A stretch of 64,000 nucleotides of DNA from Tilletiaria anomala UBC 951 (taxonomy: Eukaryota > Basidiomycota > Exobasidiomycetes > Georgefischeriales > Tilletiariaceae): positions 1 to 64,000 of the forward strand of contig NW_013546968.1 of the NCBI RefSeq assembly GCF_000711695.1, written 5' to 3'. This document shows positions 27,098 to 34,484 of this stretch, piece after piece. How positions within the stretch are numbered: the first letter of the stretch is position 1; every line of letters begins with the position of its first letter. A model generated the notes under the pieces. It did no database searches, had not been told where the DNA came from, and worked only from the letters and a program-made list of their open reading frames with translations. The position numbers and the translations under genes are program-made.

Positions 27098-27341
27098 AAC
27101 CCGAGCAGGCGGCCTTGCTTGCCCAAACTTCTTCCTTCCCCTTCTCTCCCTGTAGCTGGCTACAAACCATCTCCCCCAGGTTCCTTCGTCCTCAAGCGAG
27201 TGTTCGATACACTGCCAATCCTCCACTTCCTGTTTATCCACTTTTCGACTTCGATACGGAACAGCTGGTCTGCTTCCACCACTATCGACACTCTCATTTC
27301 ATCACTGTGCTGACCGTCTGTCCAACCGCCATTTTCGCACC

Positions 27342-28805
27342 ATGACCAAGATCTCGCTCTACGCTCTCATCGGCGCTGTCGCCACGGCCTCTCTGTCCGT
27401 CAGCGCTGCATCTGTCACTGTTGCCGAGGCCCGCGTCACGCCGCTGGCCACCCGCAACATCGATACGAGCAGCGATTGGAACTACGATAGCTGGGCTCGC
27501 CGTGATATCACCCAGCCTCGCAACACCTGGGAGATGCCCGCGGCCCGCGCTGGTATCATCTTCGCCCGGGATGATGTGGCTTCATCATCCTCTGACTCTA
27601 GCTCTATTGCCACACCGTCACCGAGCACAAAGTCTAGCGACAACTACAAGCACCACAAGCACCACAAGCACAAGTCTACTCCTGCCGACGCTAAGGCCGA
27701 ATCGACGTCATCCAGCTCGAGTTCGTCATCCAGCTCGAGTTCGTCGTCAACCTCGAGTTCGTCGTCAACCTGGAGTTCGTCGTCAACTTCGACTTCGTCG
27801 TCAACTTCGACTGCGTCGTCAACTTCGACTGCGTCGTCAACTTCGACTTCGTCGTCAAGCTCTTCCAGTAGCCACAGTGCGACCTCAACCACATCTTCGG
27901 CCGCCAAGGCCACACCCACCCCTGCTCCTGTCTGGGATGCCGAGAAGTTCCGCGCCGACTTGAAGTCCAAGCTCGACAAGCAGCGCACCAACCTGTCTGA
28001 AAAGATGTCATCCGTGTCCTCGTCCCTGTCTTCGGCTCGCGCATCCCACTCGGCCTACGCCGCCTCGGTCACCAAGTCTCACTCGACGATCGCCATGCCC
28101 ACCGCCACCCACGGTCACTGCGATGGTATCAAGGTCCATGGCAAGTGCTGCAGCACTCGCATTGTCATTGACGGCAAGTGCTATGCCTCAGACGACAAAG
28201 GCTCCACTAAGCCTATCCCCGGCAAGACGGTCTATATCAACAACAAGGAAGTCAAGATCTCCGAGTCAAGCACCTCGCACAACTCGACCTTGTCTTCTTC
28301 GTCGTCTTCTTCGTCTTCGTCTTCTTCGTCATCTTCGTCGTCGTCCTCACTGTCTGCCGCCAAGGCCACTTCCACAAGCTCCACGGCCTTGCACAATGAC
28401 AAGAAGAAGGAAGAGCACCTGAGCAAGACCCGCGTCGAGCTCAAGCACCAAAAGGAGGAGGCCAAGCACGAACTCCAGAAGGCAAAGGAGGACCTCAAGA
28501 AGGCCAAGAAGCCGGAAGAAAAGCAGAAGGCCCACGACGACGTTAAGCACGCCAAGGACAAGGCCATCAAGGTGCAGGAAGGCGAGAAGAACCTCAAGGT
28601 TGAAGAGGCGGCTCTGAAGGAGAAGACCAAGGCCGACAAGAAGGAAGCTGATCACGACGCTTCCAAGTCGGCCACCATTCTTGCAACGCCCCACATCAAG
28701 ACTACAAAGAAGAGCGGTGCTGTCTCAGACCTTCTCAATTCGACTGGCTTCAAGCCGGTCGTGACTGCCGCCTTTGCCGTCATTCTCGCCAACAGCGTGC
28801 TGTAG
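27342..28805 (+). CDS. secreted Ser-rich cell-wall protein with charged C-terminal half, probable GPI anchor
   Basis: Single exon, 487 aa, from ATG in a strong context (GCACCATGACC). Residues 1-22 are a signal peptide (LIGAVATASLSVSA). Then a region with RR and DD pairs, a His/Lys patch (KHHKHHKHK), and a long Ser/Thr run encoded by an 18-bp minisatellite. A short cysteine segment follows (HCDGIKVHGKCCSTRIVIDGKC), then a second Ser run. Next is a strongly charged Lys/Glu/Ala stretch of about 90 residues likely to form a coiled coil (HQKEEAKHELQKAKEDLKKA). The C-terminus (LLNSTGFKPVVTAAFAVILANSVL region) is hydrophobic, as in GPI precursors. No enzyme domain. The Ser/Thr runs are likely O-mannosylated, giving a stalk at the cell surface. 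Confidence 0.75.
   Translation: MTKISLYALIGAVATASLSVSAASVTVAEARVTPLATRNIDTSSDWNYDSWARRDITQPRNTWEMPAARAGIIFARDDVASSSSDSSSIATPSPSTKSSDNYKHHKHHKHKSTPADAKAESTSSSSSSSSSSSSSSTSSSSSTWSSSSTSTSSSTSTASSTSTASSTSTSSSSSSSSHSATSTTSSAAKATPTPAPVWDAEKFRADLKSKLDKQRTNLSEKMSSVSSSLSSARASHSAYAASVTKSHSTIAMPTATHGHCDGIKVHGKCCSTRIVIDGKCYASDDKGSTKPIPGKTVYINNKEVKISESSTSHNSTLSSSSSSSSSSSSSSSSSSSLSAAKATSTSSTALHNDKKKEEHLSKTRVELKHQKEEAKHELQKAKEDLKKAKKPEEKQKAHDDVKHAKDKAIKVQEGEKNLKVEEAALKEKTKADKKEADHDASKSATILATPHIKTTKKSGAVSDLLNSTGFKPVVTAAFAVILANSVL
27705..27866 (+). repeat. coding minisatellite, about nine 18-bp units
   Basis: Units of the type TCGTCGTCAACTTCGACT repeat head to tail inside the Ser-rich wall protein gene, encoding S-S-S-T-S-T or similar. 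Units 5 and 6 are identical to each other, as are 7 and 8. The outer units are diverged, which suggests recent internal expansion. Confidence 0.85.
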
Positions 28806-29984: not shown

Positions 29985-30970
29985 ATGTCGCTCACTCAAG
30001 CCCAAAAAGTGCGGGCCCTTTCGCTTTATCGGCGTCTACTCAAAGCTGGCCAGACCACGTTCGCTGGGGACCAGCGGGTCATTTCAGCCTGGCAAGACAA
30101 GATCAAGACCTCCTTCAAGGGACCTCAGCAACTCGCCAGCGATGGGGCTAAGGCTGTGGAAGCCAAGCTACAGGAGTGGGAGGATGTCATTATGCTGCTG
30201 AGGCGGAACGTTGTGCAAGGAACAATGCACCCCGAGACTGGCGCTTACAGTGAGTCGACACGCTCATGTGCAGGGCGTTTTGCACACTACAGAACATTGA
30301 CCGAGCTTGTCTTGCAGGCTTGCGATTCACAGCAGACACCGAGCTTGGATCAAATGAATCGGTAAAGCAGGCACGTAAGCAGCAATTAGAGTCTCTGGCG
30401 ACTAGCAAGGGCCCGTCGTGCCGAAGCTCCCAGACCCGAGCATTCAGTCACGCATCGCCAGCTCAACTGCTTTCCGCGTCTTCTCGAGCGCTGGACTTCT
30501 CCACATCCTCACGTCATGCGTTACCGCAACAGCGAACGTTCAGCTCGAGCAGGCTGTATGCGGCTAAGGCTTCTTCAAGCTCTGTCCCCTCGCCTGTCCC
30601 TCACTTCCCAACAACGATGATTCTCTCGGACGGTTCATCGATTCAGATGCACACCACCTCGCCACGACATGTCACTCGTCTGACACGTGACGTCACCAAC
30701 CACCCGCTGTGGAACCCTGCGTCGGAGAAGCGTGGTAATGGCCAGGGCGATGGGTCCGAGGCGGAAGTCGGCAGGCTCGGTCGCTTTAGGCGACGCTTCG
30801 CAGAGGAGGCTATCCCTGCATCATTGCCATCGTCTGGCGCAAGGTCTGGCAGCGCACAGGCAGCCGATGGGCGGTTCGGGGAAGAAGACTTGGCATGGAT
30901 GAGCGTGGGTGGCAGGCAAGCGCGAGCCGGGACACCGATCTCGAAATCGAAGGCCAAGGGCAAGAAATGA
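29985..30970 (+). CDS. MZM1: Mzm1/LYRM7 complex III assembly factor fused in frame to mitochondrial ribosomal protein bL31m
   Basis: Two exons, 29985-30249 and 30318-30970; 305 aa. Residues 1-115 or so are a LYR protein (LYR at 14-16 in ALSLYRRLLKAG, then FKG, LLRRNVVQG, LRFTADTELGSNESVKQA). The order matches Mzm1/LYRM7, the matrix chaperone that holds the Rieske protein before insertion into complex III. The frame continues through a Ser/Arg-rich linker (about 125-188) with no acidic residues for long stretches, like a mitochondrial presequence. It has R-x-(F/Y)-(S/A) sites such as RLY-A at 167-170. From residue 189 comes bL31m: MILSDGSSIQMHTTSPR, then LTRDVTNHPLWNP and FRRRFAEE. The intron (GTGAGT to TTGCAG) lies inside the Mzm1 part. 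No ATG in the linker could start a separate bL31m with its presequence on the spliced mRNA. Confidence 0.85.
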
Positions 30971-32121
30971 GTGGCACAGAGCCCCTTGTATGCAGTTGTA
31001 TCTTCGTGCAATGCCTTTGTTTCTTCTTGCAATACCTTTCATGCTCCTATTTGCACGCATCAGGTCTGTCTCCAGGACCTGGGTTGACGTGCGGTTAACT
31101 TCAAAGACTTCGTGCGAAGGCATCCTTAGTACCTGGTAGATATTGCTCTTGTATAGTGGAACTGCACTCCGCGCGGAAAGTCCTCAACACATGCATCCGG
31201 GTGCGCCTCTCAGCTTGGCTCAGTGCTTGCTTCTTTGCCTGAGCACCTCGGTGTACAAATGTCGTAGCGGTTGTTTCATATATAGACAGCAGATGCTCAT
31301 TCGGCCGACTGCAGGTCGAAGAAAGAGCGGTCTGATCGGGTCGTATTCTTGGCGAGAGGAAGGCGAAAAGGCCGTTCACGTTGATATTGTGATGTGACGA
31401 CTGGTGCTGCTGGTGTTGGCTTGATGGTGGCACAGTCTCACTGTGGCCGATTACCGATAGGCGCCGGCGCGCTCCTCCGAAGATCTCGCAGGGTGCGCAA
31501 CCACAACTTCAACATCTCAGAACCACTCTCCACAGAACTCCAACGTCCCTAACGGTCCCATCAATCATCCATCTGGTTCCATGAATCAACTTACCGAAAT
31601 TAGCAGCTTCTGCACAAATACCTACCTTGCCAGTGTGGATCTCAATGTGATATGCAAACCGACACTGGCGCCTTGAGAATTCAATCTTTATCGTCCTCGC
31701 GCGCGGGTGCTCACTGCTTCGACGACCCTAATTGATTACCGGAAAATCACATCCAACAGCTTATGCAACTGAGACTCGTCGGCTTACTGACTACACCTTG
31801 AGGCAACTTGAACTGATTGACCGCGCCACGCTGATCCAAAGTCGCTCGGAGGTGGGGTTTCTTCTCCCAATAGACTTGCGACCAACAAGCATCGATGCAA
31901 AGCGTTTTTTGTGAACATTGCCTACCTAGGGTCTGGCCAGACCTGACGTATAAAAGACCACGACAGAGTGCCGTAGTCTTGACATTCACCTTAAGTTCAT
32001 TCGACCTTGATGTCATCCGCCTCGGCTTCTCGTCCACGTTGTCCTTCAGCTTTGCCTTCGACCGCTGACCACATCTCAAGGTAAGATTGATTTCGAGCGA
32101 CCGCCCGCAAGATATCCCATA
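30971..32121. other. intergenic, promoter of the sedolisin gene at its end
   Basis: No coding frame recognised. The last 200 bp hold a TATA box and the leader of the sedolisin gene. Confidence 0.45.
31949..31956 (+). promoter_or_regulatory. TATA box of the sedolisin gene
   Basis: TATAAAAG lies 173 bp upstream of the ATG at 32122, the best TATA match in the window, followed by a CT-rich leader. Confidence 0.55.
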
Positions 32122-34484
32122 ATGGTCCGACTTCAGCTACTTGCGTCTGTCACGCTGGCTCTTGCTATCGCACACCATGCTGCTGCACTCCCTGGCACCT
32201 TGGACGTTTTGTCTCTTATAGATGGACAAGTAATGCAGCCTCCCCCTCGGATCGACCCGGCCTGGCAGCAGGGAGAGCCTAGTAACACCAACGGCCTCAT
32301 GACTTTTACTATGGCGATCCAGTCTTCTGACGTCTCAGGGTTAGAGAAAAAAATGCTCGCTATCTCCGAGAGCCACGATGGGCCCAACGGAGGCATGCCC
32401 TGGCTCAGTGAGGACGAGCTCAAGGCCTTTGCCATGCCTTCGGAGCCCAGCTTGAATGCGGTCCGCGATTTCCTCTCCGCCGCTGGCATTAAAGACGGCC
32501 AGATCAAATACTCGAAGTTCAAAGACAGAGTCACTGTGCAAGGGGTCACTTTGGGCCGCATTGCACAGCTTTTTGACGCCCAATTCTTTGACTACAGCCT
32601 CAAAGGCCAGCACGAGGTGGCTCGCACGCTGACGTACACCATCCCTGCATCACTGAAAGGCACAGTGACCACCATCTCACCCTTCAATGTGTTCATGAAT
32701 GTCAAGGCCATGACGACCAATGTTCGCCCAATGCTACCTGAGGGCGTGCCCGCCGTCGCCGAACCCGACTCGCTCGAAAGTCGGCCCGCCGGCAGCCGCG
32801 TGTCTACATTGGTAGGAGCGAAGCGCCATCACACGACCATGCGTCGTGGCTCGGCCGCTGAGCGTACATCGCACAGAGCTCAAAAATCGTACACGGAGTC
32901 AATCGCGGCTCCCTCAGCATGCAGTCTCACTGCAGTGACGCCCGCCTGCCTTCGAAGTCTTTACAAAAATGATCTCTACAAGCCCCAGCCTCATCAAGCA
33001 GGTGAAGATGTTGCCATTATGGGCTACATTGATCAATCTGTGAGCCTCGAGATGGCCATTCCTTAAACCTTTCCAGCTATGCGCTAACTTTCCACTCCTT
33101 TATCATTTTGCAGGTTTCGCAAGCGGATCTCACCGAATTCCTCAAGATATATCGTCCAGAGGCGGCGGATGTCCTGTTGCCCATTCGAAGCAGCAGGGAA
33201 GCTATTAATCTCGAACAGAACCCAGGTCTCGAAGCGATGCTGGATGTCGAGACCGTGGTCTCTCAGATCTGGCCGCTCAAGGCTGCTTTCCAAGATGTCG
33301 GTACGTATCTCACCCAAGGCGATGTCTTTCAGATTGCTACCCAAGATTTTATTGACAAGGTGGGTAGAGTAAGGTAGCTTGGGGTTGCGGAGCGCTGCTG
33401 ACCACGATATATACCGCGCGCTGCTCAGTTCGACCATACCGACCGCCCCCGCGTCGTCTCAACGAGCTACGGTGCCGACGAGACAGGCATGACACTGGAT
33501 CAAGCGCAGCTCCTGTGCGACTCTAGCATGAAGCTCTCAGCTCTAGGCACAACCCTTATCTACTCAAGTGGCGACAATGGTGAGTTTCTTCACCCTACAC
33601 CGCATTTCGGACGTCGCAAGAACCATGCTGACCCAAGCCATTTCCTTCAGGCGTTGCTGGAACGCAAGGGCCCCCCGAAGGAACAAATACCTGCCCAGAA
33701 TTTACCCCAACTTACCCGAGCGGCTGTGCTTTTGTGACGAGCGTCGGCGCATTGCAGAAATTTGCACCAGAAGTAGCCGTCGGCCAAGATCTCGCAGGCT
33801 ACTATGGCGGGGCTGGCTTCAGCAACTATTTTAAAGTGCCTACTTGGCAGCACAGCGCTGTGACGGAGTACTTTGCCCGAGACGTTGCATCGACCCCTCC
33901 CGCAGAGGGCAATTATAATCGATCCGGCAGAGCTTATCCGGACCTATCAGCTCAAGGATACGCTTATGCCATCGTGCAAAATGGCCAGAATCTCACCGTT
34001 TCCGGCACGTCGGCCAGCGCACCGACCATTGCGTCTAATATTGCGCTGCTGAATGATGCGCGCCGTCGGAAAGGCCTCGGCACGCTCGGCTGGCTCAACC
34101 CGGCGCTGTACCGCGACTCACGCGGATTCACCGATATATTGAAGGTAAGCTCGCACGTAGGCAGAAACTATCCGAGGTTCCATGCGAACTGAACATTCCG
34201 TCTACTCAATGCGATCAGGGCGGCTCGTTCGGATGCACTAACCTCCCCACGCAGGCAGAGGACAACCGCTTTCCCGTCGGTTCGCCTCTGCATTCCACTG
34301 GATTCCCTGCTACCAAGGGATGGGGTGAGTACGACATGCCCCGGTAGGTTTCTAATTCTCACAGACTGTGGTTGCTCATCACTGGCGCTACTTCCCCCGT
34401 TCTTCCCGTGGCACTACAGATCCCTCGACCGGTGTTGGCTCACCCGTCTTCACCGTGCTCCGCGAGCGATTCCACGCAAACTAA
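32122..34484 (+). CDS. secreted sedolisin (S53) tripeptidyl-peptidase-type protease
   Basis: Six exons: 32122-33039, 33114-33359, 33429-33579, 33651-34144, 34219-34324, 34420-34484; 659 aa. A signal peptide (LLASVTLALAIAHHAAA) is followed by a pro-domain of about 200 residues (PWLSEDELKAF, FDAQFFDYS). The catalytic part shows Glu346 and Asp350 (GLEAMLDVE), the oxyanion Asp437 (SSGDN) and the nucleophile Ser559 (SGTSASAP). The C-terminal FTDILKGGSFGC and KGWDPSTGVGSP segments hold the calcium site. S53 enzymes are acid proteases that take tripeptides off the N-terminus or cut internally. The pro-segment is removed by self-cleavage, perhaps in the stretch between VGAKRHH and the YKNDLYKP start of the mature fold. 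All junctions restore conserved residues. It is expected to be extracellular or vacuolar. Confidence 0.93.

What the first reader, a model, noticed from the sequence alone, without database searches (positions are those of the whole stretch)
29985..30970. Mzm1 (complex III assembly) and bL31m (mitoribosome) in one reading frame, with a presequence-like linker between them
One two-exon gene encodes an LYR/Mzm1 domain, then an Arg/Ser-rich linker with R-x-(F/Y)-(S/A) sites (for example 167-170), then a complete bL31m core. In the families I know these are separate proteins with separate genes. The linker looks like an ordinary mitochondrial presequence now trapped inside a fusion. There is no Met in the linker on the spliced message, so a separate bL31m with its own targeting signal cannot start there. 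If the matrix protease cuts inside, one precursor would supply a respiratory assembly factor and a ribosomal protein in equal amounts, linking two mitochondrial programmes. An ATG inside the intron at 30266 is in frame with exon 2 and could give an alternative product.
Basis: partly seen in the sequence, partly recalled or inferred. Interest (0 to 1): 0.75.

Follow-up and report, generated by a model that had tools for sequence, protein, structure and literature searches.

The report
Conserved Mzm1–bL31m mitochondrial fusion precursor
In smut fungi and their relatives one gene makes a joined protein holding both a respiratory-chain assembly factor and a mitochondrial ribosome protein, with a conserved cutting signal between them, so both are probably made from one import precursor.

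Summary
The gene is real. Exons 29985-30249 and 30318-30970 encode 305 aa: an Mzm1-type LYR domain, a Ser/Arg-rich linker without Met, and a fungal bL31m. The window is Tilletiaria anomala UBC 951; its assembly shows no second bL31m or Mzm1. The fusion is not peculiar to this species: 61 full-length relatives (28 named taxa, three of the five named classes of Ustilaginomycotina) carry it, while the unfused relatives found are other fungi. The linker varies from 23 to 106 residues, yet R-x-(F/Y)-(S/A/T), an MPP plus Icp55 type site, is kept in 55 of 61 (5.3 expected by shuffling); other spacings are near chance. The 30 residues before the site are nearly free of acid. Best reading: a composite precursor cut in the matrix, probably after Phe163, into Mzm1 and bL31m. 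Cleavage was not shown. Precedents exist (Arg5,6, Atp25, Rsm22-Cox11); this pair I did not find in print. Equal final amounts are not shown, and the intron ATG is unsupported. Unexpectedly, agaric models join Mzm1 to a C12orf65-type release factor, so Mzm1 may have joined mitochondrial translation genes more than once.

The parts
29985..30249 (+). Exon 1: LYR domain, residues 1-88 and the first base of codon 89
   Evidence: Translation; PF13233 at 12-81 just over cut-off; profile alignment with L14, Y15, F26, N75-G79 conserved
30250..30317 (+). Intron, 68 nt, GTGAGT...TTGCAG; contains ATG 30266 in frame with exon 2
   Evidence: splicing restores the Mzm1 C-terminal motif LRFTADTELGSNES, which unfused Mzm1 also have
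30318..30970 (+). Exon 2: Mzm1 C-terminal part, linker and bL31m in one open frame, stop included
   Evidence: identical to deposited K437DRAFT_247959
30320..30361 (+). Mzm1 C-terminal motif, residues 90-103 (LRFTADTELGSNES)
   Evidence: L90, T96, E97, L98, G99 invariant in 11 aligned fusions; motif also in unfused Mzm1
30407..30595 (+). Linker, about residues 119-181, Ser/Arg-rich, no Met, presequence-like
   Evidence: low predicted confidence
30437..30448 (+). Possible cleavage site RAFS, residues 129-132
   Evidence: Motif R-x-(F/Y)-(S/A/T)
30533..30544 (+). Favoured cleavage site RTFS, residues 161-164 (MPP after T162, Icp55 trim to S164; inferred)
   Evidence: Lies 22 residues before the linker end, within the range of the last site in many relatives; 55 of 61 linkers keep the motif
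30551..30562 (+). Possible cleavage site RLYA, residues 167-170
   Evidence: Motif
30602..30721 (+). bL31m core, residues 184-223
   Evidence: PF21492 over cut-off, profile positions 21-60 of 60 (only match in the genome); 6yw5_V E 7.2e-6, 3j6b_V E 3.9e-5; Foldseek's first six rows are fungal bL31m chains but none with E under 0.001
30722..30967 (+). bL31m C-terminal part, residues 224-305, with conserved G240-R241, F245-R246, F249, D279, W282-M283, G286-G287
   Evidence: Invariant columns in 41 aligned fusions

Best explanation
The gene encodes a composite mitochondrial precursor. The cytosolic ribosome makes one 305-residue chain; the basic amphipathic N-terminal LYR helix takes it into the matrix and stays on (inferred). 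In the matrix MPP cuts the linker after R-x (favoured R161-T162) and Icp55 trims one Phe to leave Ser164 (inferred from the motif), freeing Mzm1 with a C-terminal tail and a bL31m of about 142 residues. bL31m joins the mitoribosomal large subunit; Mzm1 guards the Rieske protein for complex III (both from what the families do). The fusion most likely arose once, early in Ustilaginomycotina, by joining an upstream Mzm1 gene to a downstream bL31m with its presequence; the presequence survives as the internal cutting site. Shown here: the frame, its conservation, the conserved motif, no second copy in this genome. Inferred: import route, cleavage, products, single origin.
For: One open frame joins the Mzm1 C-terminal motif to bL31m within exon 2. 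61 full-length relatives. Motif R-x-(F/Y)-(S/A/T) in 55 of 61 linkers, 5.3 expected; at under 80% identity 32 of 35, 3.0 expected, while R-(F/Y), R-xx-(F/Y), R-xxx-(F/Y) and K-x-(F/Y) variants give 2, 5, 1 and 2 of 35 against 3.0, 2.9, 2.7 and 1.7. 30 residues before the last site are 1.0% acidic, whole proteins 11.3%. Unfused bL31m carry the broader R-x-(F/Y/L/V/I)-(S/A/T) in 32 of 38 (16.3 expected), and their presequence region has the same median amphipathicity as the linkers, 0.40. One bL31_N match in the genome; the whole protein matches only this gene and a weak linker-only place. bL31m tree: a split holds all 61 fused and none of 38 unfused, support 0.634. Precedents of internal MPP cutting: passages.
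Against: No cleavage product, transcript or mass-spectrometry datum was available. 6 of 61 linkers lack the motif, four of them Tilletia models. In this species the linker is weakly amphipathic (0.33; the LYR helix 0.53). The motif also occurs in the LYR part of 10 and the bL31m part of 25 of 61. 25 of 61 linkers hold a Met, in 8 of them at one place 25-45 residues before the last site. Unfused bL31m carry the narrow F/Y motif in only 8 of 38 (2.9 expected). The tree support is moderate.
Confidence: 0.8

Rival explanations
1. The protein stays whole: bL31m carries a permanent LYR domain on the mitoribosome and tethers a respiratory assembly step (or acyl carrier protein) to it.
For: LYR proteins do sit on mitoribosome assembly intermediates (5ool, 7o9k rows). 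The fusion is old and kept.
Against: The linker diverges in length (23-106 aa) and sequence but keeps a protease motif; a selected tether would not need that motif.
Confidence: 0.08
2. bL31m is (also) made on its own from an internal start: the intron ATG 30266, Met189, or, in smuts, a linker Met, through another transcript or leaky scanning.
For: ATG 30266 is in frame with exon 2. 25 of 61 linkers hold a Met; 8 at the same alignment place before the motif. 7 of 16 N-truncated models begin in what reads as intron.
Against: 36 of 61 linkers, this one included, hold no Met. Met189 occurs in 1 of 61. Two smut linkers have Val at the smut Met place (P0008, P0011). The intron seems to be present in unfused Mzm1 too (by eye).
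Confidence: 0.08
3. Two neighbouring genes wrongly merged by annotation.
For: Merged models are common; the LYR review warns of annotation errors in predicted LYR fusions (PMC4381221, passages).
Against: The Mzm1 C-terminal motif and bL31m lie in one exon without a stop between, and so read 61 full-length relatives.
Confidence: 0.02

Closest known systems
S. pombe Rsm22-Cox11 tandem protein
   Same: A mitochondrial ribosome-related protein and a respiratory assembly factor in one precursor, said to be cut after import (PMC4381221, passages)
   Different: Other proteins, other order (ribosome-related half first), another lineage
Atp25 (yeast, Emericella)
   Same: Composite precursor joining a mitoribosome-linked and a respiratory-complex-linked part, with internal MPP site (PMC8847149, passages; the original papers are not held)
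   Different: Domains unrelated to Mzm1 and bL31m
Arg5,6 and ACAD10
   Same: One precursor cut internally at MPP sites into two proteins (PMC8847149 passages; PMC11342911 passages)
   Different: Metabolic enzymes; unrelated domains
Predicted LYRM4-C12orf65 (RF-1) fusions of insects
   Same: LYR protein joined to a mitochondrial translation factor (PMC4381221 Table 2)
   Different: Isd11-type LYR, release factor instead of bL31m; database predictions, not tested there
Mzm1-release factor models of Agaricomycetes (this work)
   Same: Mzm1 first, mitochondrial translation protein second, R-x-(F/Y)-S-like site before the second half in many
   Different: Other partner; only protein models seen; unfused Mzm1 models also occur there

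Membership tests
Composite mitochondrial precursor cut by MPP | Two otherwise separate mitochondrial proteins in one open frame | tested here: met
   unfused relatives of both halves found in other fungi
Composite mitochondrial precursor cut by MPP | MPP-type site between the two parts | tested here: met
   As a motif only: three sites here, 55 of 61 relatives, 5.3 expected
Composite mitochondrial precursor cut by MPP | Two mature products in mitochondria | not testable with these tools
   Needs proteomics or import assays
Mzm1/LYRM7 | LYR tripeptide and downstream Phe in a helical bundle | tested here: met
   L14-Y15-R16 and F26; helices 5-74; PF13233 just over cut-off, PF05347 below; LYR chains among structure matches
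Mzm1/LYRM7 | C-terminal TELG(S/N/D)N motif shared with unfused fungal Mzm1, set apart from other LYR proteins | tested here: met
   Profile hits to unfused Mzm1-type models down to E 1.7e-29 (P0134); PF20263-type LYR proteins, one of them named Isd11, only at E 1.1e-3 or worse
Mzm1/LYRM7 | Stabilises the Rieske protein for complex III | not testable with these tools
   Role from PMC9502982 passages
bL31m | bL31_N domain and sequence match to solved fungal bL31m | tested here: met
   PF21492 over cut-off; yeast and N. crassa bL31m
bL31m | Present in the mitoribosome | not testable with these tools
   Needs purified mitoribosomes

The most novel reading that the evidence does not exclude
Mzm1 is a recurrent natural carrier for mitochondrial translation proteins. 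It joined bL31m in Ustilaginomycotina and, independently, a C12orf65-type release factor in Agaricomycetes, each time with an R-x-(F/Y)-S-like cutting site before the second half, because joint synthesis of a complex III assembly factor and a piece of the mitochondrial translation machinery is selected for as a way to balance the two programmes.
Probability: 0.2. Interest if true: 0.72.

Novelty: new member of a known kind. Interest (0 to 1): 0.52.

Why it matters
It adds an old, lineage-wide natural polyprotein to the few known cases where the matrix protease makes two proteins from one precursor, and pairs a respiratory assembly factor with a ribosomal protein, as Rsm22-Cox11 does in fission yeast. 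Dozens of diverged linkers form a natural library for what an internal MPP site needs. It also shows that databases name these proteins by one half only (for example 'Mitochondrial zinc maintenance protein 1' or 'ribosomal protein L31').

Tried and rejected
Intron ATG 30266 as a conserved start: not supported; an intron at that place is also seen in unfused agaric Mzm1 models (by eye). Of 16 N-truncated models 8 begin at the native Met of the LYR tail, 7 in what reads as intron and 1 in exon 1, so an in-frame Met in the intron is neither rare nor general.

Out-of-frame frame 30516-30620, Arg-rich, whose stop overlaps Met189: presequence-like by composition, but out of frame, and Met189 occurs in 1 of 61 relatives; treated as chance.

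Cryptic introns in the linker: one pattern scan (GTRNGY-type 5' site, branch site, YAG, 45-160 nt) gave none; a weak test.

A second copy of either half in this genome: none seen. Seven LYR-family places were found, this gene among them; the other six were not identified one by one. Short unfused proteins in other Ustilaginomycotina were not excluded: search 1 only sees 168-534 aa, and no search was made with bL31m alone.

Foldseek gave no match with E under 0.001; its first rows fit bL31m but are weak.

Literature: searches brought up no paper on Mzm1 joined to bL31m (held open-licence library only; one search gave one unrelated listing). Friedl 2020 and Woellhaf 2016 are not held; I know them here only from reference lists and a review.

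Full report

It is conserved. The search with the whole protein (candidates of 168-534 aa) gave 127 proteins at E up to 10, 120 listed. In 77 of these the Mzm1 C-terminal motif lies upstream of the bL31m core; 61 of the 77 are long enough to hold the LYR domain and 16 are N-truncated. The 61 include 29 named proteins from 28 taxa (names read, two proteins from Tilletia horrida, three names cut off in the listing): Tilletiaria, Exobasidium, Meira, Microstroma, Parajaminaea, Ceraceosorus, four Tilletia, Ustilago, Sporisorium and other smuts, Violaceomyces and eight Malassezia. A ninth, Malassezia sp. CBS 17886 (P0072), is a fusion by eye but lacks the motif letters and was not counted. Looked-up members belong to Exobasidiomycetes, Malasseziomycetes and Ustilaginomycetes, three of the five named classes of the subphylum; the other placements are recalled. 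Several N-truncated and exon-1-only models share a longest-contig length (P0067 and P0125, 12371; P0068 and P0129, 5621; P0073 and P0137, 4145), which suggests that gene callers split one gene at its intron. In a bL31m tree of 61 fused and 38 unfused sequences (108 columns) one split holds all the fused and none of the unfused, support 0.634.

No separate copies here. In the 18.4 Mb assembly bL31_N matches once, in this gene, and the fusion protein matches only this gene plus a weak stretch of linker. One unnamed model, P0078 (195 aa), shows bL31m without an LYR half; truncated model or separate gene, I could not decide.

The linker. Taken from 10 residues after the Mzm1 motif to 8 before the bL31m core, it is 23-106 residues long. 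R-x-(F/Y)-(S/A/T) occurs in 55 of 61 (5.3 expected from shuffled linkers). With relatives thinned to under 90, 80, 70 and 60% identity outside the linker the counts are 45 of 50, 32 of 35, 17 of 18 and 8 of 9, against 4.4, 3.0, 1.5 and 0.9 expected. Controls at under 80%: R-(F/Y) 2 (3.0 expected), R-xx-(F/Y) 5 (2.9), R-xxx-(F/Y) 1 (2.7), K-x-(F/Y) 2 (1.7), R-x-(L/I/V) 1 (7.5) of 35. The 30 residues before the last site are 1.0% acidic and 13.3% basic; whole proteins 11.3% and 15.9%. The motif also occurs in the LYR part of 10 and the bL31m part of 25 of 61, so the letters alone do not prove a cut site. Unfused bL31m carry the broader R-x-(F/Y/L/V/I)-(S/A/T) in 32 of 38 (16.3 expected) and the narrow one in 8 of 38 (2.9 expected; two of 40 models had no parsable core); their presequence region and the linkers have the same median amphipathicity, 0.40, and the fusion N-termini 0.60. 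In this species the linker is weakly amphipathic (0.33), the LYR helix more so (0.53, charge +4). A Cys occurs within 30 residues after the Mzm1 motif in 51 of 61, as near the end of many unfused Mzm1 (by eye); the join seems to lie just after the old Mzm1 C-terminus.

Exceptions told. Six linkers lack the motif: P0020, P0026, P0027, P0028, P0032, P0033. Four are Tilletia, which keep FST but lack Arg at that spacing; a fifth Tilletia model, P0037, has RSFS. 25 of 61 linkers hold a Met; in 8 (P0006, P0009, P0013, P0014, P0018, P0022, P0025, P0044) it lies at linker position 16, 25-45 residues before the last site, so separate initiation is conceivable there, though P0008 and P0011 have Val at that place.

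Mechanism. MPP plus Icp55 processing at RX(F/Y/I/L)|(S/A)(S/T), and internal MPP cutting in Arg5,6, Atp25, Etp1 and Rsm22-Cox11, are described in PMC8847149 (passages). Rsm22-Cox11 is said to be cut into separate proteins after import in PMC4381221 (passages; conclusions and Table 2 read). Human/mouse ACAD10 is cut internally at MPP consensus sites (PMC11342911, passages). Engineered polyproteins are cut in yeast mitochondria at a 10-residue MPP site ending RRAFHT (PMC10450427, passages), close to the RAFS of many of these linkers. Mzm1's role with the Rieske protein is from PMC9502982 (passages). Import by the LYR helix, cutting at R161-T-F163/S164 and the fates of the two parts are inference.

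Parallel case. Some unfused-length Mzm1 hits from agarics ran on into a release-factor sequence. A search with five of them gave 533 proteins at E up to 0.01, 120 listed, 115 of them new. 69 of 115 have a strict Mzm1 motif ahead of GPGGQ; 85 of 115 have a relaxed Mzm1 motif ahead of the release-factor N-terminal motif. Of three scanned, all pass the RF-1 cut-off; the LYR Pfam model is below cut-off in one and absent in two, so the Mzm1 half rests on the profile hits. R-x-(F/Y/L/M)-(S/P/T) within 12 residues of LKKAH occurs in 57 of 91 parsed models against 3.0 expected; that pattern was chosen after seeing sequences, and 24 models were not parsed. Unfused Mzm1 models with KCCS-type ends occur there too (Pleurotus, Armillaria), so splicing or annotation could lie behind these fusions; no agaric DNA was seen. 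With the LYRM4-C12orf65 predictions in insects, this hints that LYR genes and mitochondrial translation genes have been joined more than once.

Verdict. A real, old, widely kept composite precursor; new as a pair as far as my searches reach, known as a kind. The regulatory claim (equal amounts, linked programmes) stays open.

Noticed in passing
Proteins P0160, P0174, P0181, P0189, P0200 and P0212-P0326 (no window coordinates): Agaricomycete models join Mzm1 to a C12orf65-type release factor (85 of 115 new models hold both motifs in order), often with R-x-(F/Y)-S just before the second half. Could be fusion, alternative splicing or merged models.
   Followed up: partly
window 30516-30620, +: Out-of-frame, Arg-rich 34-aa frame inside the linker whose stop overlaps the ATG of Met189; Met189 occurs in 1 of 61 relatives, so probably chance.
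   Followed up: yes
P0078 (unnamed metagenome model, 195 aa): bL31m with a presequence-like start and no LYR half: either a truncated fusion model or a separate gene.
   Followed up: no
L007 (genome contig C172, 17723-17875): A Complex1_LYR match over cut-off lies in an open frame of 1694 aa, possibly another LYR domain next to or inside a large gene.
   Followed up: no
window 32011-33066, +: Open frame with a pro-kumamolisin activation domain (PF09286, E 4.3e-21), likely a sedolisin-type peptidase.
   Followed up: no
window 27156-28805, +: Ser- and Lys-rich low-complexity open frame of 549 aa; only a sub-cut-off Pfam match (PF11600).
   Followed up: no
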